Source: Gammaproteobacteria bacterium | Lineage (GTDB): Bacteria; Pseudomonadota; Gammaproteobacteria; Acidithiobacillales; Acidithiobacillaceae | Assembly (NCBI GenBank): GCA_023381645.1 | Contig: JAMCRJ010000092.1 | Location: 1 to 9,185 of the forward strand | Direction of reading: 5' to 3' | DNA length: 9,185 nt | In this document: piece after piece, positions 1-9,185 of the stretch | Position numbering within the stretch: position 1 is the first letter of the stretch | How the letters are laid out: each line of letters opens with the position of its first letter | Program-made: the position numbers and the translations under genes | Notes under the pieces: model-generated | What the model saw: the letters and a program-made list of their open reading frames with translations, nothing else | Told to the model about the DNA's origin: nothing | Databases searched by the model: none

Positions 1-1851
1 ATTCCTGTCCCGCATGTGCAACAACTGTGCGACCGGCTTTTCGACAAGGTATTCCACGATGGCCAGATCGGCGAATCGTTGGCGTGCCACGGACCAGCCG
101 AAGGCGTCCGCAAGCTGTACAAAGGCGTTGCGCCACGGTTCACGCATCGCGAGACTACCCCCCGGCAGGGCGGAAGGGCGCAACCCACCCAGGTGGCGAA
201 TTTCGCGGTAACTCACCTGCAAGCACTCACAACCCCACCAAGCGCCCCCATCGCCCAGACCCATACCGTCCAGAGCCAGGGCGATGACCGGCGGATGTTC
301 CAGCGGCAGGCCATGTTCCGCCATGACTGCGGCAATATGGGCGTGATGGTGTTGCACGGAAATCAGGGGGAGATCGCCCTCCTCCGCCATCTCCACCCCC
401 CACTTGCGCGACAGATATTCGGGATGGCGGTCCACCACGACGGCCTTGGGCACATGCTGGAAGAGCCGGGCGTAGAGGGCGAGATTCCGGACAGTGTCGT
501 CCCAGACCGCTGCCTGTTCGAGATCGCCCATGTGCTGGGAAAGGATGGCTTGTCCGTCCTTGATCAGACAGAAAGTGTTCTTGAGCTCCCCACCCAGCGC
601 CAGCAGGTCCGGCGACGCTCCGAAACCCGCGGGCAGCGGCAACGACTCCGGCGCGTAGCCACGCCCCCGGCGCAGAATCATGGTGTCGTCTCCCGCCATC
701 TGCACCACGGAATCATCGACGCGGTTGATGATCGCCCGGTCATGAGTCAGCATCCAGTCGGTCACTCCCCGCAGCGCCCGGACAGCGGCCGCGTCGTCAG
801 TGACCTGTGGAGCATCCGAGAGATTGCCGCTCGTCAGGACGATCGGTCGGTCCATCCGGCGCATCAGGAGATGGTGCAGGGGGGTATAAGGCAGCATAAA
901 CCCGAGCCGCCGCATCCCCGGCGCAATGCCGGGCGCCAGGGAGTCGTTGTCCAGACGGTTCAGCAGCACGATGGGCGCCTGATGAGACTGCAGCAACTTC
1001 TCCTCTGCGCGGCTCACGTGCGCATAGCGACGCACGACCTCCAGATCCCTGGCCATCAACGCCAGGGGCTTATGGGGACGGTGTTTGCGCAGGCGCAAGG
1101 CGGACACCGCACGGTCATTCGTGGCATCGCAGGCGAGATGAAAACCGCCGAGCCCTTTGATGAGCACGATTTCCCCACACTTGAGGAGGTTGGTCGCCGC
1201 GTCCACCGCGTCCAGTTGGGTATACCGGTCGGCACTGACCGCGTGGCCATCGAGCCGGACGAGCCGGGCCTTCGGGCCGCAGGCATGGCAGGCCACCGGT
1301 TGCGCGTGGAAGCGCCGGTCTTCCGGATTTTCGTATTCGGCACGGCAATCCCTGCAGAGCGGAAAGACGCCCATGGAGGTATGGGCGCGGTCATAGGGGA
1401 TGTCTTCGAGGATCGAAAAACGCGGACCACAGTGCGTGCAATTGGTGAAAGGGTAACGATAACGCCGATCGAATGGATCGAAAATCTCCTGCAGGCAGGC
1501 GGGGCAGGTAGCGGCGTCAGGCACCGCTCCCGTATGTACGTGCCCGGAGCGGCTGGTGCTGATCCCGAAAGGTCCCTCGGGAGGGTCTTCGCGCAAATAT
1601 CCGCGGACCACCTCGTCAATGCGCGCGAGGGGGGGGTGTTCGTCGCGCAGGCGGGTCAGAAATCGATCCCGCTCTGTTGCAGGCCCCCAGATCCGGATCA
1701 GCACCCCTTCCCCATCGTTGCACACATCGCCCGACAACCCGCAGTCGCGGGCAATGCGCCAAACCGCAGGACGGAACCCAACGCCCTGAACCAGTCCGCG
1801 CACCCGGACTTCCTCGCCCAGGGTTGCGACCCGGTCCGCGGGGGAATTCAT
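1..1851 (-). CDS. hypF: [NiFe]-hydrogenase maturation carbamoyltransferase HypF (3' end cut by window)
   Basis: HypF converts carbamoyl phosphate and ATP into the carbamoyl donor that HypE turns into the CN ligands of the [NiFe] active-site iron; it is cytoplasmic. The minus-strand frame is open for 617 codons from ATG 1851 to the left edge. Visible in order: an acylphosphatase-like domain (VRGLVQGVGFRP, residues ~17-28); a double zinc finger with C116/C119, C138/C141, C166/C169 and C188/C191, including the family string DRRYRYPFTNCTHCGPRFSI; a YrdC-like domain (KGLGGFHLACDATN from ~232, then KPLALMAR, then TSGNLSD); and the Kae1-like carbamoyltransferase domain (ALGGELKNTFCL, then SVQHHHAHIA, then ALDGMGLGDGGAWWGCE). 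About 130-160 C-terminal residues of a usual ~750-780 should lie outside. The ATG overlaps the NHL gene stop as ATGA, implying coupling. No hypA, B, C, D or E is in the window. Identity is very secure. Confidence 0.97.
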   Translation of the reverse strand, partial: MNSPADRVATLGEEVRVRGLVQGVGFRPAVWRIARDCGLSGDVCNDGEGVLIRIWGPATERDRFLTRLRDEHPPLARIDEVVRGYLREDPPEGPFGISTSRSGHVHTGAVPDAATCPACLQEIFDPFDRRYRYPFTNCTHCGPRFSILEDIPYDRAHTSMGVFPLCRDCRAEYENPEDRRFHAQPVACHACGPKARLVRLDGHAVSADRYTQLDAVDAATNLLKCGEIVLIKGLGGFHLACDATNDRAVSALRLRKHRPHKPLALMARDLEVVRRYAHVSRAEEKLLQSHQAPIVLLNRLDNDSLAPGIAPGMRRLGFMLPYTPLHHLLMRRMDRPIVLTSGNLSDAPQVTDDAAAVRALRGVTDWMLTHDRAIINRVDDSVVQMAGDDTMILRRGRGYAPESLPLPAGFGASPDLLALGGELKNTFCLIKDGQAILSQHMGDLEQAAVWDDTVRNLALYARLFQHVPKAVVVDRHPEYLSRKWGVEMAEEGDLPLISVQHHHAHIAAVMAEHGLPLEHPPVIALALDGMGLGDGGAWWGCECLQVSYREIRHLGGLRPSALPGGSLAMREPWRNAFVQLADAFGWSVARQRFADLAIVEYLVEKPVAQLLHMRDRN

Positions 1852-3044
1852 GATCGCCTGTCCCAAAGCAGCACGCGGTTGTTACCCGAGTCGGCGATGA
1901 TCACGCTCCTTCCCGCAGCAGAAATCCCATAAGGCCAGCACAGCGTATTGCGCCCCACCACGCCCCAGCGGTTGTCCCCCTTGTGCTGGAAACCATCCTG
2001 ACCGGCGAGGGCGCGTGCCGAAGCACCCGTCAACAGATCGTCCGCCTGCCAGCCCAGCAGCCGGCTGTTGGCCGTATCCGCCACGATCAGCCAGTTTCCC
2101 GTGGCGGTCACCCCATAGGGCATATTGAAGCAGGCCGCATTGGGGAAATAATTACCGCGATTGTGGGCGTTCTGAGCAAAATCAGGCTGTCCGAGAACCA
2201 TATCGGCCACCTGACCATTGCGCTGTGGCGCCCCACGCCAGAGCAGCACCCGGTTGTTCCCCGCATCCCCCACGACCAGCCAATCCCCGAAATGGGTTAC
2301 CGCATGGGGCCAGCGCATGCTCATGGCGTCGGCTTCGTGACCTCCGTTCTCGTCCCGGCAATGAAAATCCGCCTGGCCCAGGACCCCGTCCGCGGGTTGT
2401 CCTTTTTCCGTGGGAATGCCCTCCCACCAGAGGACGCGGCGGTTACCCGAATCCGCGACATAGAGCCGGGCACCATCCCAAAAGACCCCATAAGGCCAGT
2501 ATAAGGTGGACGCGGATGGTTGGGGCGCACCGCGATTGATTTCCGCCGACACAAAATCGGTTTGGCCGAGAACCAGATCCGCCGGAGCCTGGCTTTCATG
2601 AGGTACTTCATACCAGATCAGCACCCGATGGTTCCAGACGTCCGCCACCGCCATCCCATTGCCAACCGGACAGATCCCGGTGGGAACATTCAGCGATGCC
2701 GCGCCGACAGGGCCGTGGGCGTTGCGCCCCCCGTCCCGTTCAAAATCTGGCTGACCAATGAGCCAGGTGGCAGGTTGGCCATCGGCTTCGGGTAGCGTGG
2801 GCCACCCCAGCAAGCGATGATGGCCGGTATCAGCCACCCAAAGGGATCCGTCAGCCATGAGGCTGGCACCACGCGGGCCGAAAAGCGTCTGCGCGGAAGG
2901 AACGACAGGTACGACGACCCCCCTGGGCCGTACCTGCTCCCCCAGGATGACCCTTGCCCCCGCACCAACCAGCAACTGCTCCGAAGGGATGGTGGCTGGC
3001 CGGTTCCGGATAGCGGCACTCAGGGGAAGGGTATATTCAGTCAT
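1848..3044 (-). CDS. NHL-repeat beta-propeller protein of the hydrogenase cluster
   Basis: 398 aa. I see six NHL-type blades ending in variants of 'VADSGNNRVLLW' at about residues 69-81, 133-144, 196-207, 258-269, 321-332 and 383-394, spaced about 62 residues apart. Most blades are followed by a conserved linker of the form LVLGQxDF (~94-101, 157-164, 220-227, 282-289, and a weaker copy ~346-352). This predicts a closed six-bladed propeller, a fold usually used for protein binding rather than catalysis. There is no N-terminal signal peptide or membrane helix, so it is probably cytoplasmic. The ATG at 3044 overlaps the end of the NifU-Rieske gene by 8 bp and has a GAGGAAGG ribosome site just upstream; its own stop overlaps hypF. 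NHL proteins are, as I recall, frequent companions of group 2a hydrogenases, but the exact function is unknown. A role as docking or assembly platform is inference. Confidence 0.9.
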   Translation of the reverse strand: MTEYTLPLSAAIRNRPATIPSEQLLVGAGARVILGEQVRPRGVVVPVVPSAQTLFGPRGASLMADGSLWVADTGHHRLLGWPTLPEADGQPATWLIGQPDFERDGGRNAHGPVGAASLNVPTGICPVGNGMAVADVWNHRVLIWYEVPHESQAPADLVLGQTDFVSAEINRGAPQPSASTLYWPYGVFWDGARLYVADSGNRRVLWWEGIPTEKGQPADGVLGQADFHCRDENGGHEADAMSMRWPHAVTHFGDWLVVGDAGNNRVLLWRGAPQRNGQVADMVLGQPDFAQNAHNRGNYFPNAACFNMPYGVTATGNWLIVADTANSRLLGWQADDLLTGASARALAGQDGFQHKGDNRWGVVGRNTLCWPYGISAAGRSVIIADSGNNRVLLWDRRS

Positions 3045-3942
3045 GATCCTTCCTCACCTGGATCTCGCCGTCGACCACCCGCACCGCCCAGGGCTCCAAC
3101 TGGACCTCGGGTATCGTCAGACATTCCCCGCTCTCCAACGCAAACTGGAATCCGTGATGCGGACAGGTCAGAACCCCGGCCGGATCCACTTTCCCCTCTT
3201 CGAGGGGCATACCCAGATGGGCGCAGGCATTGCGGTAACAGTGCACATCTCCATCCGGATCGCGCCAGAACAGCAGGGCATCGGAAAGCACCTCCCGGGC
3301 GCGCAGGCTATTTCGCGGCAGATCCTCCAGCCGCATGGCCGGCAGCCAGGGATGACGCCCGCCAATGGCGAAGGGGCTGATACGCTGTTCAGACCCTTCC
3401 CCGGTCAGCGCGGTGGCGGCGTACTGCCGACCCGCCGTTTCAATATGGCGTATTTCCGGGCAGGCATCGCGGATCGCTTTCTCCACCCCATCCGACAAGG
3501 TCAGCGAGGAAGACGGGCAACCGTGACAAGACCCCAGCAGGCGCAAAATCACGGTATCGGGTAGACGCAGCTCGACCAGCTCGACATTGCCGCCATGTCC
3601 TTCCAGCCCCGGCCGCACGCTGTCCAGCGCGGCTTCGATACGTTCCTGCAGGGAGGGCCGAACCAGACCCAGCGTCCGCAACACCGCGTAGACGTACGGA
3701 TCCGCGGCGGCTTCCCGCAAGCCGGTGGCACCCTGCGGAGCACTCTGTACGGTACGGATAAGACGCCGCAGGCATTCTCTATACATCGCCTCCCAGCCAT
3801 CGCGCAGTGCCAGCACCGTTCTTTGCTGCGTTTCATCCCATCCCTGCACGATTTTTTCGAGGCTGCCCAATCGGGCGATATCTTCCGTCAGGGTATCTGC
3901 TTCCCTGCGTCCAATGTCATCCGGCACGGGTGACGTAGCCAT
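3037..3942 (-). CDS. NifU C-terminal domain / Rieske [2Fe-2S] ferredoxin fusion
   Basis: 301 aa in three parts. Residues 1-95 are a helical region I do not recognise. Residues ~96-165 match the NifU C-terminal (Nfu) domain, with the strings RPGLEGHGGNVELV and GSCHGCPSSSLTL; C139 and C142 form the CxxC that binds a transferable Fe-S cluster. Residues ~195-296 form a Rieske-type domain with C240-x-H242 (CAHLG) and C260-x2-H263 (CPHHGFQF), the complete ligand set for a [2Fe-2S] cluster. There is no signal peptide or membrane anchor, so it resembles soluble ferredoxin-type Rieske proteins. It starts at ATG 3942, one base after the stop of the upstream membrane-protein gene, and its end overlaps the NHL gene. 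Possible roles are electron acceptor from HupS, or cluster delivery to it. The domain calls are secure; the role is inferred from context. Confidence 0.92.
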   Translation of the reverse strand: MATSPVPDDIGRREADTLTEDIARLGSLEKIVQGWDETQQRTVLALRDGWEAMYRECLRRLIRTVQSAPQGATGLREAAADPYVYAVLRTLGLVRPSLQERIEAALDSVRPGLEGHGGNVELVELRLPDTVILRLLGSCHGCPSSSLTLSDGVEKAIRDACPEIRHIETAGRQYAATALTGEGSEQRISPFAIGGRHPWLPAMRLEDLPRNSLRAREVLSDALLFWRDPDGDVHCYRNACAHLGMPLEEGKVDPAGVLTCPHHGFQFALESGECLTIPEVQLEPWAVRVVDGEIQVRKDHD

Positions 3943-3943
3943 G

Positions 3944-4168
3944 TCATGCGTACTTCAAATTCACGAAAAGGAAGGGCTGCAGGGCGCCACACAGGGCGCC
4001 GGCAACCAGACAATCCACCAGATACGGAATGCCGGCGAAATGTCCGGCAACGACGACCACGGCAGCCAGGAGACTGTTGGCCGTCAGCAGCATCAGGACC
4101 AATCGGGTATCCCTGAAAAGCTTTCCGCGCAGGAACAATCCCGCCGAGTTCCATATCATGTCCCACAT
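3944..4168 (-). CDS. Small two-helix membrane protein, function unknown
   Basis: 74 aa. An N-terminal stretch with aromatic and basic residues (MWDMIWN, then RGKLFRDTR) precedes two hydrophobic segments at about residues 22-42 and 48-69. Basic residues lie before helix 1 and at the extreme C-terminus (NLKYA), and the loop between the helices is very short, so a hairpin with both ends in the cytoplasm is likely. The start ATG at 4168 has a strong AGGAGG site 5 bases upstream (4174-4179), which supports a real gene despite its size. It follows another mini membrane-protein gene by 28 bases and precedes the NifU-Rieske gene by 1 base. I do not recognise the family. Context suggests a membrane anchor or quinone-docking subunit for the hydrogenase, which is inference. 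Confidence 0.8.
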   Translation of the reverse strand: MWDMIWNSAGLFLRGKLFRDTRLVLMLLTANSLLAAVVVVAGHFAGIPYLVDCLVAGALCGALQPFLFVNLKYA

Positions 4169-4173
4169 AACAT

Positions 4174-4179
4174 CCTCCT
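4174..4179 (-). promoter_or_regulatory. Strong ribosome binding site of the 74 aa membrane protein
   Basis: AGGAGG read on the minus strand, 5 bases before ATG 4168. It is among the best Shine-Dalgarno matches in the window, and it fixes the start of a very small gene that could otherwise be doubted. Confidence 0.8.
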
Positions 4180-4196
4180 GTTGGTATACCGTGGCT

Positions 4197-4424
4197 TCAG
4201 ATCAGTACAAGGATGATGGTGCCCAGGACCAGCCCGGGAATGACGGGCATCGCTCCGTACATGCCCCCCATCATCGCCGCCAGCTTGTTATCGCCCAGCT
4301 TTTTGCCACAGATCAGCGCCCCCGACACGGCTCCCGCCAACACCCCGACCAATCCACCCAGCAAAATCCATAAAATGGCGATCGCCTGTATATGCTGACC
4401 GTCGAATGCGTCCAGTGCCGACAT
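4197..4424 (-). CDS. Small glycine-rich two-helix membrane protein, function unknown
   Basis: 75 aa with two hydrophobic segments at about residues 12-39 and 49-75, joined by a short basic loop (GKKLGDNK, residues 40-47). Both helices are rich in glycine and alanine with small-residue spacing (LLGGLVGVLAGAVSGAL, and MMGGMYGAMP). Such spacing allows tight helix-helix packing and oligomer formation, as in c-ring-like or holin-like hairpins. The polar loop suggests a cytoplasmic loop with both ends outside, the opposite of the next small membrane protein; this topology is a guess from the positive-inside rule. ATG 4424 has GGAGAG six bases upstream. It lies 24 bases after the TPR gene. The family is not recognised; with its neighbour it may form a membrane platform for the hydrogenase. 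Confidence 0.8.
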   Translation of the reverse strand: MSALDAFDGQHIQAIAILWILLGGLVGVLAGAVSGALICGKKLGDNKLAAMMGGMYGAMPVIPGLVLGTIILVLI

Positions 4425-4448
4425 AGGTGCTCTCCGATATTTTTCCAG

Positions 4449-5429
4449 TTAATGTACAGATCCCTGTTCGCGTACCAGTGCCAGGGTTTCGTCCAGGGCC
4501 ACGCGGACCAGTGCTGATTTATCCAGTTCTCCCGTTTCCGTGAAGATCTTTTCCGCGGTTTCATACAGTCTGACCGCCTCACCCAGATTCCGGACGTTGC
4601 CCAGTTCCGGGTTTTCCGGGTCGTCGGGCAGGTTCCGCAGCGCATTGGCCATATTGCTGATGGTGTTTGCATATTCGCCCGGCCGCTCTTTGGGAGTCCG
4701 CACCCGCAACGCCTCCCGATAGGCTTCCAGAGCACGCAGATTATTTTCGATCGGATGCGCGCTGCTGCTGTACTGCAGGGCATTACCGAGGTTGTTTTGC
4801 AGCATGGCGTACTCCGCCGGATGTGCATCGAGGGTGATGGCACGCAACGCGGACTCGTAGGATTGCACGGCCAGGGCCTCACGCATTCTGGAAGTCTCAT
4901 CACCCATGGTCATGGACAGATAGGCGGTGGCCAGATTGTTGTGGAGGATCGCGTATTCACGCGGGAATTTATCCGCGGTAAAAACCCGCAAGGCGCTGTG
5001 GTACTTCCGTACGGCATCCGGGAACGGCGCCTTCCCCGCCACGGCGAGCCCCTGTAGGGCCAGCCCCTCGTTCATCTCGGCTTCGGCAGCCTCTTCGGCG
5101 TTTCCCAGGGTCTGCAGCACTGGCAACGCACCGCGCAGGCAAGCGACAGCCTCTTCGAGCACCCCGGTATCGCCGGGCGTCGCCAGCAAGGCGGTCGCCT
5201 GTCCGGCCAGGAGCCGCGCACGTAGCAGGGTGTCCTCATCCGGGCAGACCTGTAAACCTTCTTTGTATAGGTGGTTGACCTGTTCGAGGTCCTCCGGTCG
5301 GCGCGGGCGCCGTTGCAGACCCAGGGCGATCTCCATGAGCATTTCCGCACGTTCGCCGGCCGGAATGGTGTCATCCCGGGCGGTTCTCAAGGCGACCTGG
5401 TATTCCGTTTCTGCCAAAGTCCCGGACAT
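4449..5429 (-). CDS. TPR-like repeat protein of the hydrogenase cluster
   Basis: 326 aa, almost wholly helical and without a signal peptide or membrane segment. At least three related repeats are visible. The first helix reads REYAILHNNLATAYL (~157-171), AEYAMLQNNLGNALQY (~205-220) and GEYANTISNMANAL (~251-264). The partner helix reads AVRKYHSALRVFT (~139-151), EALAVQSYESALRAIT (~184-199), LRALEAYREALRVRT (~231-245) and LGEAVRLYETAEKIFT (~282-297). The spacing of about 47 residues is longer than a canonical 34-residue TPR. The N-terminal 130 residues are also helical and may hold degenerate repeats. It is the first gene after a predicted promoter (5478-5505), with GGGGGT 7-8 bases before ATG 5429. 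TPR proteins usually act as protein-binding adaptors, so it is a candidate scaffold or assembly chaperone for the hydrogenase complex. That role is inferred. Confidence 0.88.
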   Translation of the reverse strand: MSGTLAETEYQVALRTARDDTIPAGERAEMLMEIALGLQRRPRRPEDLEQVNHLYKEGLQVCPDEDTLLRARLLAGQATALLATPGDTGVLEEAVACLRGALPVLQTLGNAEEAAEAEMNEGLALQGLAVAGKAPFPDAVRKYHSALRVFTADKFPREYAILHNNLATAYLSMTMGDETSRMREALAVQSYESALRAITLDAHPAEYAMLQNNLGNALQYSSSAHPIENNLRALEAYREALRVRTPKERPGEYANTISNMANALRNLPDDPENPELGNVRNLGEAVRLYETAEKIFTETGELDKSALVRVALDETLALVREQGSVH

Positions 5430-5477
5430 GAAAGACCCCCGAATGAAACACGAAATGTAATGTTTATTTGCAATCTC

Positions 5478-5505
5478 AGTGTAGCGCAGGAAATGGATCT
5501 GTCAA
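5478..5505 (-). promoter_or_regulatory. Predicted sigma-70-type promoter for the TPR-to-hypF module
   Basis: On the minus strand a perfect -35 TTGACA (5500-5505) is followed after 16 bp by TACACT (5478-5483), which matches four of six bases of TATAAT. It lies in the only AT-rich intergenic gap of this size in the cluster. Transcription would start near 5471 and leave a ~40-base leader before ATG 5429. It would let the downstream genes be transcribed separately from hupSL. Prediction only. Confidence 0.6.
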
Positions 5506-5520
5506 GAATAATTACATATA

Positions 5521-5537
5521 TGATAAGTTACTTATCA
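5521..5537 (-). repeat. Perfect inverted repeat TGATAAG-TAA-CTTATCA
   Basis: A 7-bp perfect inverted repeat with a 3-base centre. The centre, read on the minus strand, is the TAA stop of the 109 aa gene. It sits 15 bp upstream of the predicted -35 box, a position suited to an activator or regulator site. It could also be a weak hairpin, but it is AT-rich and no T-run follows, so a terminator is unlikely. The half-site spacing does not fit the FNR pattern TTGAT-N4-ATCAA. Confidence 0.5.
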
Positions 5538-5857
5538 AGCGATTCCGGGCATAGCTGTCTCGTCTGCCACGCTCCCTGTTCCGGCATCCACAGAAAGGAA
5601 AGAACCCCCTCGAAGTTCTCCGCCAGTTCATGATCCCGCAGGAAGAGGCGGAGATCGACCACGCGGTCACCGGCAAGGTTGCGCTGCTTCAGCAAAAAGC
5701 CGCCGACGGTACCAGGATGCAATGGGATCAAATGCAAACATGGCGATCGCCAGAGCACGGCAACCGCCAGGAGACCGGCCATGGTACCGCGATAGGCGGG
5801 CGCGGGAATAAATAGGTACCCGTCTTTCAACAGGAGATTTACGACCCTGTCAGTCAT
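5528..5857 (-). CDS. Hypothetical 109 aa protein downstream of the hydrogenase protease
   Basis: I do not recognise this protein. It is 109 aa with a hydrophobic central part (AGLLAVAVLW, ~27-36), but this is too short and too mixed with beta-like segments for a confident membrane helix; a small soluble alpha/beta protein is more likely. Two cysteines (C40, C103) are widely spaced and form no obvious motif. It starts at ATG 5857, whose last bases overlap the protease stop as ATGA, which strongly supports a translated, coupled gene even though the ribosome site is weak. It is the last gene before the AT-rich gap that carries the internal promoter. Its position between the maturation protease and the TPR gene suggests an accessory or assembly function, but the sequence does not show one. 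Confidence 0.72.
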   Translation of the reverse strand: MTDRVVNLLLKDGYLFIPAPAYRGTMAGLLAVAVLWRSPCLHLIPLHPGTVGGFLLKQRNLAGDRVVDLRLFLRDHELAENFEGVLSFLWMPEQGAWQTRQLCPESLDK

Positions 5858-6327
5858 GGGGTCGCTTCCGCCTCGGCCAACGCCGCTTTCACCTGGGCCA
5901 ATACTGCGGGGATCGCCCCCTCCACCGGTGGAGTGAGCCCGTCGCCGAAACCGAAATCGGTGCCCTCCACCAAAAAGACGGTCACCCGCTCGGGGAATCG
6001 CTCTCCAAACAGGCGTTTTCCGGCATAAAGCGCATGTTCCCAGCGAAAGTCGTGCAATGTGAGGGTAGGGGTATGGGGCAATTCCAGCTCACTGCCAGGC
6101 AACCTGAACACCGATCCCGGATCGCTACCCGTCCGGCATGCATCCACAATGATGAGCTGCCGACAATCGCGGGCCTTGAAAATCACGTCCATGCCGGATG
6201 TGCCCGCATCATGGAGGGCGATATCTGCGGACAGGGGATCCAGCGCGCCCCGCAACCGCTGAATAACCGTGATACCGACCCCGTCATCGCGTCGGTACAA
6301 GTTGCCGCATCCCACCACCACGCGCAT
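5854..6327 (-). CDS. hupD: [NiFe]-hydrogenase maturation endopeptidase, HupD/HybD family
   Basis: 157 aa, the usual length for this family. These proteases recognise nickel in the precursor large subunit and cut off its C-terminal peptide. The N-terminus MRVVVGCGNLYRRDDGVG matches the family glycine loop. By comparison with E. coli HybD (E16, D62, H93), the likely nickel-contact residues are D15, D62 (LIIVDAC) and H92 (TLTLHDF), so Glu is replaced by Asp at the first position. The motif DAGTSGMD (~40-47) is also typical, as is the late string GDGLTPPVEGAIP. I chose ATG 6327, two bases after the stop of the upstream four-cysteine gene, because family members begin right before the beta-strand leading to the GxGN loop. 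An in-frame GTG at 6342 would add five residues and overlap the upstream gene. The likely substrate is the HupL encoded upstream. Confidence 0.93.
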   Translation of the reverse strand: MRVVVGCGNLYRRDDGVGITVIQRLRGALDPLSADIALHDAGTSGMDVIFKARDCRQLIIVDACRTGSDPGSVFRLPGSELELPHTPTLTLHDFRWEHALYAGKRLFGERFPERVTVFLVEGTDFGFGDGLTPPVEGAIPAVLAQVKAALAEAEATP

Positions 6328-6329
6328 GA

Positions 6330-6662
6330 CTAAATTCGCCACAACCGACAGGACCAGTCGGGCCTGACCGGTAACATCAATTCAGGAAGCGCGCAGAACT
6401 GCCGGTGCGAAAGGAAATACATACACGTTTCGCACGCTTGCTCAATACCCTCGGCTGCATAAGGATGCAGCGTGAATCCGGCTATCCCGACACGTTTGGC
6501 GATCTCTTCCGCCGGTACATTCTGCAAACGCGTCAGCACCGATTGTTGCATCTCCGGATCGTACGCACGCGGTTCCGCTTCGGTACGCAGGCCAGCGAGC
6601 AGCAATTTTTCCAGCCGCGCACGTATCGGCGCGTCCTCCGGGAATTCTTCCATGGTTTGCAT
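6330..6662 (-). CDS. Small four-cysteine protein, copy B (hydrogenase-associated)
   Basis: 110 aa, a paralogue of the gene directly upstream. The N-terminal ~70 residues are helical and less conserved (shared LxAGLxTE and GFTxxP). The C-terminal 34 residues hold C77-x2-C80-x9-C90-x14-C105 and end in PDWSCRLWRI at the very C-terminus. In this segment 23 of 34 residues are identical to copy A. Four conserved cysteines with a terminal W-x-C could bind a [4Fe-4S] cluster in a HiPIP-like manner (HiPIPs have C-x2-C, a third Cys and a terminal GWC), or a zinc ion. No signal peptide is seen. ATG 6662 is preceded by AAGGGGG about nine bases upstream and lies 18 bases after the copy A stop. The function is unknown; electron transfer or assembly of HupS is the contextual guess. 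Confidence 0.85.
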   Translation of the reverse strand: MQTMEEFPEDAPIRARLEKLLLAGLRTEAEPRAYDPEMQQSVLTRLQNVPAEEIAKRVGIAGFTLHPYAAEGIEQACETCMYFLSHRQFCALPELMLPVRPDWSCRLWRI

Positions 6663-6680
6663 ATCCAGATACCCCCTTGC

Positions 6681-7001
6681 CTAGATGCGCCACAGGCGGC
6701 ACCACCAGTCCGGCTCTACCGGAACGTCCAGTTCCGGCAGGTCACACCAGCGGCGGTGGTTGAGATAATACATGCACTCCTGGCAACGCTGCTGATCTTC
6801 TCCCATGGGATAATCCGTAAAACCGCCAATCACCAGTTTCTTCTCCAGATCCGACCCCGCCTCTTCGCGGATACGCTGCAATAGTTGCGCGAAAGCATTA
6901 CTGTCTTCGGGAAATGGGGTGATCTCTGTCTTCAGTCCCGCTTTGAGCATGCTGGCGATTTGTGCCCGTAATGCGTCCTCTTCCTGTGCCATGTGATTCA
7001 T
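6681..7001 (-). CDS. Small four-cysteine protein, copy A (hydrogenase-associated)
   Basis: 106 aa, acidic and helical in the first 60 residues, then C73-x2-C76-x9-C86-x14-C101 ending with PDWWCRLWRI. The cysteine-rich tail is unusually aromatic (MYYL, W85, W99, W100, W104), as expected around a buried Fe-S cluster, but no cluster type can be proven from sequence. There is no signal peptide or membrane helix. ATG 7001 has GCAGGG upstream; ATG 6992, three codons later, is a possible alternative start. It is the first gene after hupL, separated from it by an 89-base gap with a stem-loop, and is followed by the paralogous copy B. I do not recognise a named family. A HiPIP-like electron carrier or Fe-S insertion factor for the hydrogenase is plausible but inferred. 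Confidence 0.85.
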   Translation of the reverse strand: MNHMAQEEDALRAQIASMLKAGLKTEITPFPEDSNAFAQLLQRIREEAGSDLEKKLVIGGFTDYPMGEDQQRCQECMYYLNHRRWCDLPELDVPVEPDWWCRLWRI

Positions 7002-7045
7002 GATGACCCTGCCTTTCCCGATTCAAGCGGCTGAATTTTTGGGGG

Positions 7046-7063
7046 CCGGACACCGCAGTCCGG
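7046..7063 (-). other. Intercistronic stem-loop after hupL
   Basis: A perfect 6-bp stem CCGGAC/GTCCGG with a 6-base loop lies in the gap between the hupL stop and the next gene. A GGG about seven bases upstream and a CCCCC just downstream could lengthen it with a bulge. No T-run follows on the minus strand, so it is not a standard terminator. An mRNA-stabilising or attenuating hairpin behind hupSL is possible. Confidence 0.4.
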
Positions 7064-7090
7064 TATCCGACCCTTTTTAGACCATACGGC

Positions 7091-8689
7091 TCAGGCAGTG
7101 CGGAAACGTGCGAGCTCCTTTCCGGACTTGGCATCATGGGCATGCACCGTGCAGACCAGACAGGAATCGAACGAACGAGCCACATGCCCGACCTCCACCG
7201 GATCCGCCGGATTGGCGATAGGCGTGCCAACCAAAGCCTCTTCGATGGGACCACGGCCGCCCTGCGCATCATGGGGGCCCACATTCCAGGTGGTGGGAGC
7301 GATGATCTGGTAATTGCTGATCTTGCCACCCTTCACCTCGATCCAGTGCGCCAGGGCGCCGCGCATGGCCTCCGTGGCACCCCACCCCTGTCCATCCCGC
7401 TCGCGGGGCTTGATATAGAATGGCTCATTCAGGCGGAACTCACGCAGACAATGTTCGATCTGGCGATAAACCTTCACCACCTCGTGCATCCGCGCGAAAT
7501 GCCGCAACCACAGACTGGGCCCCATTTTCTTGTAGACGTCCAGAATGAAGGGGTCGGAATGTTGCCAGGATTCGCCGTGGTCGCCGCCGGCGATCAGTTG
7601 CCGGGATAGGGGACCGGCTTCCATGCGCCCCAACTGCTCGTGGGCGACTTCGGTACACCAGGTGTAGGCCCCACTGAAGTCCCGATCGTTGGACTGCATC
7701 GGCCTCGTGGTCCGGTTGAAGGGATGGACGGGATTGCTTCCCTCATCGTACCAGCCGTGGGTCGTCGATTCACGGGTGAAGGACTGGTTCATGGGATGAA
7801 ACTTGTCGGCCTTCGCATCGTAGACGCCCCCCTTCATGACGACGGACTGCTGCCGCGTGTCGATGGTCGGATGCTGGTAACGATCCTCATGGGGAATATA
7901 GCCCCACGAGACGTACTTGCCCAACCCCCCGCCAAACTTCATCAGCCCGACATCCTCGCTGATCCGATAATACATACCCAGGTCGGAATCGGCGTGTTCC
8001 GGACGCTCGTTCAGCCACGCCATGAAATCATCATAGGACTTGATCTGCTCATAACGCTCCATCGAACACCCCAGCCATACCGGTTCCAGCCAGTTGGTAC
8101 GGAAATACTCCAATATGGACCAGGAACGTGTGACGTCGGACAGGGTGGGCGCGCACATGACGCCGCCGGGAACCATGTAGCTGGAATGCGGCCACTGCCC
8201 GCCGAAGAGGGCATAGATTTCTACAGGCTTGCCGGAAATCGTCACGCCGATTTCGTAATTGGTGCCCGTAAACGGGGCGTAACGCCTGACCGCCTCATCG
8301 TAGAACTTACCGTGCCGATAGTTCTCATTCACCATATCGATCATGAACAATCCATAATGATGACGCGGCATGCTTTGCAGGCTTTCCACAAGTTGACCGA
8401 TGTTTCTGGCCAGGATGGCGTTGCGCGGGACTTCCGTCTGCCACGCCGTGTCCAGCGCCCAGGCGGCACAGGTCAGGTGCGACGCGCCGCAAATACCACA
8501 GGCACGCGGCGTTACCACCAGCCCCGCCTGCGGATCCTTGTCTCTTAAAATGACCTCGAAGCCACGGAACAATTCAGCTTGCGTGTAGGCTTCGACCACC
8601 ACGCCGTCCCGAATGTCCACGCGTACATCCAGATCCCCCTCAACCCGACCAACCGGGCTGATATCCAGTGTCTGTACGGCTGTTGCCAT
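7091..8689 (-). CDS. hupL: [NiFe]-hydrogenase large subunit, group 2a-like uptake type
   Basis: 532 aa catalytic subunit that carries the Ni-Fe(CN)2CO site and splits H2. The N-terminal Ni-binding motif is RACGICGASH with C64 and C67; the C-terminal motif is DSCLVCTVH with C510 and C513. The start LDISPVGRVEGDLDV is typical of the family. Sixteen residues follow H516 (AHDAKSGKELARFRTA); they should be removed by the maturation protease, and the protease gene lies downstream. The length and strings such as RHHYGLFMIDMVNENYRHGKFYDEAVRRY suggest the cyanobacterial-uptake/Huc lineage rather than membrane-bound group 1; this subgroup call is from memory. I chose ATG 8689 because GAGGAG lies eight bases upstream; a TTG eight codons earlier is open but lacks such support. 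hupS ends 50 bases upstream, so the two are surely co-transcribed. The usual DPC of the second motif is DSC here. Confidence 0.97.
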   Translation of the reverse strand: MATAVQTLDISPVGRVEGDLDVRVDIRDGVVVEAYTQAELFRGFEVILRDKDPQAGLVVTPRACGICGASHLTCAAWALDTAWQTEVPRNAILARNIGQLVESLQSMPRHHYGLFMIDMVNENYRHGKFYDEAVRRYAPFTGTNYEIGVTISGKPVEIYALFGGQWPHSSYMVPGGVMCAPTLSDVTRSWSILEYFRTNWLEPVWLGCSMERYEQIKSYDDFMAWLNERPEHADSDLGMYYRISEDVGLMKFGGGLGKYVSWGYIPHEDRYQHPTIDTRQQSVVMKGGVYDAKADKFHPMNQSFTRESTTHGWYDEGSNPVHPFNRTTRPMQSNDRDFSGAYTWCTEVAHEQLGRMEAGPLSRQLIAGGDHGESWQHSDPFILDVYKKMGPSLWLRHFARMHEVVKVYRQIEHCLREFRLNEPFYIKPRERDGQGWGATEAMRGALAHWIEVKGGKISNYQIIAPTTWNVGPHDAQGGRGPIEEALVGTPIANPADPVEVGHVARSFDSCLVCTVHAHDAKSGKELARFRTA

Positions 8690-8697
8690 GTCAATAT

Positions 8698-8703
8698 CTC
8701 CTC
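8698..8703 (-). promoter_or_regulatory. Ribosome binding site fixing the hupL start
   Basis: GAGGAG on the minus strand, eight bases upstream of ATG 8689. It decides between this ATG and the longer TTG-started reading at 8713, because the site would fall inside that longer frame. Confidence 0.8.
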
Positions 8704-8739
8704 GAATATGCAATAAACAGAAATGGGTCGCTCAGCGCC

Positions 8740-9185
8740 TCAGACCACGAAGATGTCTTTTTCGGCCCAGGCCGGCGAAGCACTCTTGGCGGCTGCCGTA
8801 AGTTTGATATAAGCGGATTTGTCCACACCCTCTGGCAGGTCTTTCGGCACCCCCATCATGGTCTGGGTTTTGAACACACTGCCCGGCGCCAGATCGAAGA
8901 AGGGGAACTCCGGTTCGGTACAACCCAGACAGGGCATCCCCGCCCGGGTTTTGGACGACTGCCGGTTCCACAGGATGCGGTTACAGGGCGAATGGGTCAT
9001 CGGGCCACGGCAGCCCAGGTCATAAAAGAGACAGCCCTTTCGCTGCCCGAATTCCGTGGCGGAAACCTTGTAGGCAAAGTGCATGTTGCGGGTACATCCC
9101 GTCTGGGTGAAGCTCTTGAAAAACGTCTTTGGACGCTGCAGATCATCCAGTTCCAGTTCTCCGGCGCGGCCTGTCGCCACCGCCA
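8740..9185 (-). CDS. hupS: [NiFe]-hydrogenase small subunit, C-terminal part (5' end cut by window)
   Basis: The frame runs off the right edge, leaving about 147 C-terminal residues; the in-frame GTG at 9180 is an internal valine, not a start. The small subunit relays electrons from the active site through three Fe-S clusters; the part seen covers the medial and distal ones. Numbering from the 9180 codon, C29 (TGCTRNMHF), C50 and C57 (GCLFYDLGC) are distal-type ligands and C66, C84 and C87 (MPCLGCTEP) medial-type ligands. The histidine three residues before C29 in standard group 1 enzymes is a glutamine here (Q26). No extra cysteine is seen near the medial cluster, so a [3Fe-4S] medial cluster is expected. 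After the cluster region ~50 polar residues lead to the end (AEKDIFVV) with no C-terminal membrane helix, unlike membrane-bound group 1 enzymes, so a soluble cytoplasmic form is likely. Confidence 0.95.
   Translation of the reverse strand, partial: AVATGRAGELELDDLQRPKTFFKSFTQTGCTRNMHFAYKVSATEFGQRKGCLFYDLGCRGPMTHSPCNRILWNRQSSKTRAGMPCLGCTEPEFPFFDLAPGSVFKTQTMMGVPKDLPEGVDKSAYIKLTAAAKSASPAWAEKDIFVV

What the first reader, a model, noticed from the sequence alone, without database searches (positions are those of the whole stretch)
1..9185. Extended group 2a-like hydrogenase island with five to six poorly described accessory genes
Besides hupSL, hupD and hypF, the same operon-like array holds two tandem four-cysteine proteins, a 109 aa orphan, a TPR-like protein, two mini membrane proteins, a NifU-Rieske fusion and an NHL propeller, all minus-strand with overlaps or tiny gaps. 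Group 2a enzymes (mycobacterial Huc, cyanobacterial HupSL, Nitrospira) need unusual partners to pass electrons to quinone; Huc uses the scaffold HucM. No HucM-like gene is obvious here. The set could be a different solution for coupling a soluble, possibly high-affinity H2 oxidiser to the membrane.
Basis: partly seen in the sequence, partly recalled or inferred. Interest (0 to 1): 0.75.

Follow-up and report, generated by a model that had tools for sequence, protein, structure and literature searches.

The report
Hydrogenase operon with HiPIP-like gene pair
This is the gene set for a known hydrogen-consuming enzyme of the acid-loving bacterium Acidithiobacillus; most of its helper genes have been described before, but it carries a pair of small, probable iron-sulfur proteins and lacks the membrane-linking part of the best-studied relative (from mycobacteria), which suggests another, untested way to feed hydrogen electrons into respiration.

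Summary
The window is the hup operon of an Acidithiobacillus ferrooxidans-like strain (99.3% identical over 9185 bases to genome G001); HupL is group 2a. Most of the set is in print: TPR, two mini-membrane, NifU-Rieske and NHL genes are the Nostoc 'extended hyp-operon' set; NifU-Rieske is HucE; A. ferrooxidans oxidises sub-atmospheric H2; one of this operon's small proteins was named a HiPIP candidate in 2020.

Added here: both four-cysteine proteins form one HiPIP-like, signal-less family, consistent with one duplication and one gain on the group 2a tree (55 of 68 rows, 99/88). Of 398 genomes it was found in 4, the same 4 with HupL of at least 73% identity. Mycobacterial HucM is DUF1641: beside hupSL in three non-proteobacterial loci, beside no pair-bearing locus examined. 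Ten of the 68 rows have neither. The 109-aa protein looks MraZ-like.

Most likely the pair with HucE does the coupling that HucM does elsewhere; a maturation role is a serious rival. No function was tested.

The parts
8740..9183 (-). hupS (hucS), C-terminal 147 aa; 5' part lies outside the window
   Evidence: Pfam PF14720 E 1.1e-23; full gene in G001 copy L118 9998-10963, no signal peptide seen; nine Cys shared by 6 of 6 small subunits aligned, M. intracellulare included
7091..8713 (-). hupL (hucL), group 2a [NiFe] hydrogenase large subunit; the start may be the inner ATG at codon 9 (inference)
   Evidence: Best PDB matches M. smegmatis Huc 7uus/7utd, E 1.5e-182 and 1.8e-182, against 6.7e-56 for the next enzyme; CxxC motifs at residues 72 and 518; tree
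6681..7001 (-). HiPIP-like four-cysteine protein A, 106 aa (C-x2-C-x9-C-x14-C), no signal peptide
6330..6662 (-). HiPIP-like four-cysteine protein B, 110 aa, paralogue of A
5854..6342 (-). hupD, hydrogenase maturation protease
   Evidence: PF01750 E 1.6e-12; TIGR00072 E 6e-37
5528..5857 (-). 109-aa protein, predicted MraZ-like fold; likely HupD/HupL maturation partner (inference)
4449..5429 (-). TPR-like protein (Nostoc alr0691 counterpart)
   Evidence: homologues at 41-58% identity in the non-Acidithiobacillus loci where found; E 3e-29 to Thermus L110, annotated TPR
4197..4424 (-). mini membrane protein 1, 75 aa (asr0689-like)
   Evidence: NCBIfam NF052670 asr0689_fam E 7.2e-11, 42 bits against a cut-off of 95; hydropathy
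3944..4168 (-). mini membrane protein 2, 74 aa (position of asr0690)
   Evidence: hydropathy; conserved position
3037..3942 (-). hucE: NifU-like domain plus Rieske domain
   Evidence: PF01106 E 3.1e-21, PF00355 E 1e-19; CxxC at 139 and C-x-H-x17-C-x2-H at 240
1848..3044 (-). NHL-repeat protein (Nostoc alr0693 counterpart)
   Evidence: PF01436 E 1.1e-18
1..1866 (-). hypF, carbamoyltransferase, 3' end outside the window
   Evidence: PF01300, PF07503, PF17788, PF22521, PF00708

Best explanation
Operon of the cytosolic group 2a uptake hydrogenase of an A. ferrooxidans-like bacterium. Shown here by sequence: the enzyme's subgroup, the conserved block, a clade-specific pair of HiPIP-like proteins without signal peptide, and no detectable HucM. 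Inferred: HupD, HypF and the 109-aa MraZ-like protein mature HupL; the TPR and NHL proteins are assembly or scaffold proteins shared with group 2a systems of other phyla; electrons leave HupS through its iron-sulfur clusters, pass to a small cytosolic iron-sulfur carrier (HiPIP-like A/B and/or the Rieske domain of HucE), and reach ubiquinone at the membrane at a site helped by the two mini membrane proteins. In mycobacteria HucM instead brings menaquinone to the enzyme.
Confidence: 0.5

Rival explanations
1. The four-cysteine pair, HucE and the TPR protein are assembly factors: they build, insert or protect the iron-sulfur clusters of HupS, as hupGHIJ products are proposed to do for group 1 enzymes. 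Electron transfer to quinone is done by HupS alone or by unknown parts.
For: NifU domain in HucE; the Nostoc authors proposed HupS maturation for the homologous set; the genes lie between hupSL and hypF; the enzyme is described as purified in two subunits, without the pair.
Against: Four strictly kept Cys with a HiPIP-like layout suggest a stable cluster rather than a transient scaffold (inference); the nine HupS Cys are the same in Mycobacterium, whose locus has no such pair.
Confidence: 0.32
2. The pair is not redox-active: the four cysteines bind zinc or a structural cluster, and the proteins scaffold an oligomer or dock it to the mini membrane proteins, a structural stand-in for HucM.
For: Loss of HucM in M. 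smegmatis removes the oligomer but not activity; the pair and DUF1641 were not found side by side in the loci examined.
Against: The resemblance is to HiPIPs in both profile and fold comparisons.
Confidence: 0.1
3. An ordinary Huc-type system: a HucM equivalent too divergent for DUF1641, or coded elsewhere, does the quinone work, and the pair is peripheral.
For: HucM proteins diverge fast (26% identity between Mycobacterium and Thermus), so a distant one could be missed.
Against: No DUF1641 match in 4 of 4 whole genomes or in 21 of 22 further pair-bearing genomes; the one match is not on the hupL contig. The gene upstream of hupS in G001 is a divergent sigma-54 regulator.
Confidence: 0.08

Closest known systems
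Huc of Mycobacterium (group 2a; HucS, HucL, HucM, HucE)
   Same: HupSL homologous (HupL E about 1e-182 to 7utd/7uus); nine HupS Cys shared (M. intracellulare sequence); TPR-like, NifU-type, NHL and hypF genes in the same order in L107
   Different: No HucM/DUF1641 found; has the HiPIP-like pair, which L107 lacks, and two mini membrane genes absent from that interval of L107
Nostoc extended hyp-operon (asr0689-alr0693)
   Same: Two mini membrane proteins, TPR, NifU-like and NHL genes between hupSL and hypF
   Different: The four-cysteine pair was not found in the cyanobacterial loci (0 of 7 tree rows)
A. ferrooxidans hup operon (AFE_0702; DN052_04090-04130)
   Same: Same operon in the same species group; one gene near hupLS already called a putative HiPIP and, with NifU-Rieske, proposed as the link to quinone (that DN052_04130 is protein A is my reading from locus order); sub-atmospheric H2 oxidation shown
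   Different: The passages read do not treat the neighbouring gene as a paralogue, nor mention the clade-wide pair or HucM
HiPIP family (Pfam PF01355)
   Same: Four Cys in the same order with similar spacing, aromatic residue after Cys 2, Trp next to Cys 4; fold resemblance
   Different: No signal peptide, a helical N-terminal half, below the Pfam cut-off
Parageobacillus group 2a loci
   Same: small and large subunit, protease, small hypothetical / TPR, hypothetical, NifU, NHL in two units
   Different: DUF1641 gene at the front of the operon, no such pair listed

Membership tests
Group 2a [NiFe] hydrogenase | HupL closest to Huc among solved hydrogenases and inside the group 2a clade | tested here: met
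   tree of 74 rows. HydDB itself not run
Group 2a [NiFe] hydrogenase | L1 and L2 CxxC active-site motifs | tested here: met
   CxxC at residues 72 and 518
Group 2a [NiFe] hydrogenase | Small subunit without Tat signal, Cys ligands as in HucS | tested here: met
   (G001 copy; the window holds only the C-terminal part); compared with M. intracellulare HucS, not M. smegmatis
HucM-dependent Huc complex | HucM (DUF1641) encoded beside hucS | tested here: not met
   0 of 4 genomes; upstream gene in G001 is a sigma-54 regulator; the window's own assembly is not held
HucE | NifU-like CxxC plus C-terminal Rieske motif | tested here: met
   definition, which prints the motif's last residue as Cys; here it is CxxH, the usual Rieske form (recalled)
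HucE | Required for H2 uptake | not testable with these tools
   known to me only for M. smegmatis
HiPIP (PF01355) | Match above the Pfam gathering score | tested here: not met
   13 against 22 bits, E 0.13; 3 of 60 members at E<=1; no match in G001
HiPIP (PF01355) | Four invariant Cys with HiPIP-like spacing | tested here: met
   four Cys invariant in 60 of 60, spacing x2/x9/x14; 15 HiPIPs for comparison
HiPIP (PF01355) | HiPIP fold | tested here: inconclusive
HiPIP (PF01355) | Exported (signal peptide) | tested here: not met
   peak 19-residue hydropathy 0.40 (A) and 0.69 (B); that HiPIPs are periplasmic is
HiPIP (PF01355) | Binds a [4Fe-4S] cluster of high potential | not testable with these tools
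   needs purified protein
Nostoc extended hyp-operon set | TPR, two mini membrane proteins, NifU-like and NHL genes between hupSL and hypF | tested here: met
   comparison set

The most novel reading that the evidence does not exclude
The proteobacterial branch of group 2a hydrogenases has a second, independent way to reach the quinone pool: a duplicated cytosolic HiPIP-type carrier (unusual for a family known as periplasmic), working with HucE and two 75-residue membrane proteins, where mycobacteria use the HucM quinone stalk.
Probability: 0.33. Interest if true: 0.75.

Novelty: new variant of a known kind. Interest (0 to 1): 0.47.

Why it matters
Group 2a hydrogenases consume atmospheric H2 in several phyla. 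The only structure known to me, M. smegmatis Huc, moves quinone through HucM. If the HucM-less proteobacterial branch uses a cytosolic HiPIP-type relay, the general rule for how these enzymes feed respiration changes, and a small electron carrier for a soluble hydrogenase becomes available for study. It also turns an open question (how proteobacterial HupSL reaches quinone) into a handful of single-gene tests.

Tried and rejected
Rfam search of the window: 0 families at gathering score. PDB sequence searches with the four-cysteine protein A, the pair's profile and the TPR protein: nothing credible. Foldseek of the four-cysteine model: 2 matches of E<=10, both nuclear-receptor domains, none significant. 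Foldseek of the 109-aa model: 321 matches of E<=10, none of E<=0.001, the best plant B3 domains and others; the MraZ reading rests on the second-look aligner alone.

I first took the Cys spacing as x8/x12 and a motif count gave 0 of 49 and 0 of 48; reading the sequences again gives x9/x14, and the invariance claim rests.

I considered that the 109-aa family occurs without the enzyme (5 of 398 genomes against 4 with hupL of 73% or more); in the fifth, G146, the contig ends inside hupD and the rest of the block follows, so an assembly gap is likely. I considered a broken hupL in G360 (stop counts); the one stop in the stretch translated lies before the start.

Rows dropped or not given: the HupL tree left out L058 and L063 (matched piece of 430 residues or less) and was not given L002-L004, L089-L098 or L118. 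The tree tool warns of long branches meeting at the Bacteroidota rows, so their place is unsure. Order was scored in 39 of 55 pair-bearing loci, those with 8 kb or more downstream. Alignment A1 used 58 of the 85 distinct complete pair proteins found in loci (42 A, 43 B) plus the two window copies; A2 used 29 of 43 distinct locus proteins plus the window copy. In some searches at most 12 first-look candidates per genome were scored, so absences there are not absolute.
Full report
WHAT IT IS. The window aligns end to end (9185 bases, 99.3% identity) with genome G001, a 3.0 Mb single-contig genome. Named relatives are Acidithiobacillus ferrianus and A. ferruginosus, with HupL 95-98% identical. 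HupL's best solved relative is M. smegmatis Huc (E 1.5e-182 and 1.8e-182; the next enzyme is at 6.7e-56). On a tree of 74 HupL rows it lies on one side of a 100/100 branch with cyanobacterial, Mycobacterium, Thermus, Sulfobacillus and Bacteroidota sequences (68 rows), apart from six HupL-like sequences of 38-40% identity. The twelve genes are as listed under parts.

WHAT WAS ALREADY KNOWN. From passages, not whole papers. PMC7784904 (2020): A. ferrooxidans, with its group 2a gene AFE_0702 expressed, oxidises H2 to sub-atmospheric levels; hucE and NHL genes are common neighbours of hucL. PMC6883350 (2019): hucE is needed for H2 uptake by Huc in M. smegmatis; electron transfer or maturation left open. 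PMC2408588 and PMC3126725 (2008, 2011): the two mini membrane, TPR, NifU-like and NHL genes of Nostoc lie between hupSL and hyp genes; HupS maturation proposed. PMC7735108 (2020): HupS and HupL are among the most abundant proteins of H2-grown A. ferrooxidans, and DN052_04130, a putative HiPIP near hupLS, and the NifU-Rieske protein are proposed as the missing electron link. In the listings of four literature searches aimed at the pair or HucM and one on the A. ferrooxidans enzyme and HiPIP I saw no paper that pairs the two four-cysteine genes or contrasts them with HucM; I saw titles and abstract starts only, one of 21 papers was not listed, and the library lacks most subscription papers.

LINK TO THE ENZYME. 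In 398 genomes of G001's phylum, 32 have a HupL match at E<=1e-60; four of these are 73% identical or more, the other 28 are 40% or less. The pair was found in these four and in no other genome (4 of 398; at most 12 candidates scored per genome). On the HupL tree the 55 pair-bearing rows form one side of one branch (99/88; 98% of 200 bootstrap trees), next to cyanobacteria. They include one Acidobacteria MAG (L044). In the tree of the pair itself A and B are each one side of a branch (98/89; 100% of bootstrap trees), consistent with one duplication before the clade spread, though 109 columns resolve little else. In 39 loci with at least 8 kb downstream, A, B, hupD and the 109-aa gene are present in 39 of 39, the TPR, NifU-Rieske and NHL genes in 36 of 39, and the order is collinear in 39 of 39.

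HUCM. The DUF1641 protein upstream of hupS in a Mycobacterium intracellulare plasmid locus matches solved HucM (7uus_Q, E 2.9e-34). DUF1641 genes sit near hupS also in Thermus and Sulfobacillus plasmid loci. G001 and three further clade genomes have none (0 of 4). The gene upstream of hupS in G001 is a divergent sigma-54 response regulator. Bacteroidota plasmid loci (L109, L112) have neither. Over the 68 group 2a rows: 55 with the pair, 3 with DUF1641, 10 with neither detected. So this is exclusion, not a strict exchange; blast at 26% identity can miss DUF1641.

MINI MEMBRANE GENES. A crude scan (ATG ORFs of 50-130 aa with high hydropathy between TPR and NifU) finds two in 29 of 40 pair-bearing loci, one in 10, none in 1; two in each of the 2 cyanobacterial loci that could be scored (2 others have another gene order); none in the 3 DUF1641 loci and none in L057. 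In the loci scored, membrane genes go with the absence of HucM, with L057 as an exception.

HOW IT MOST LIKELY WORKS. Shown: subgroup, conservation, clade-specific pair, no HucM found in the genomes searched. Inferred: HupSL oxidises H2 in the cytosol; electrons pass down HupS, whose nine conserved Cys are shared by 6 of 6 small subunits compared (nine would fit the three [3Fe-4S] clusters reported for Huc), to the HiPIP-like pair and/or HucE, then to ubiquinone at the membrane with help from the mini membrane proteins. The weak point is energetics: if A or B has a classical HiPIP potential it would sit above ubiquinone (recalled values). Maturation of HupS is the main rival (0.32 against 0.5).

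VERDICT. A real, conserved and largely described operon. The new points are comparative: a dedicated, duplicated HiPIP-like pair confined to one branch of the group 2a tree and not seen beside HucM in the loci examined. Interest 0.47; new variant of a known kind.

Noticed in passing
   Followed up: partly
L058 (Hydrocoleum sp. CS-953) 991-2794: The HupL match spans 1804 bases for 530 residues, so this cyanobacterial hupL may hold an insert; not examined.
   Followed up: no
L107 13731-14504: In a Mycobacterium intracellulare plasmid the hupD gene is about 95 codons longer than here and its 3' part matches the window's 109-aa protein, a natural fusion.
   Followed up: partly
L111 14071-14568: In Sulfobacillus a 165-aa protein joins two parts that match, separately, a Thermus stretch after hupD without an annotated gene and the 85-aa protein of the Mycobacterium locus.
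   Followed up: no
L108: The hup-hyp block sits on a 28.5 kb plasmid of Sphingopyxis alaskensis typed as mobilizable; group 2a loci also lie on plasmids of Bradyrhizobium, Thermus and others, so the block may move.
   Followed up: no
L057 and genome G559: A group 2a locus on a long tree branch without the pair, mini membrane genes or adjacent DUF1641, though the genome holds three DUF1641 matches on contigs not tied to it.
   Followed up: partly
protein P0090: The A. ferridurans copy of four-cysteine protein A carries the database name 'endonuclease V', apparently a wrong transfer.
   Followed up: no
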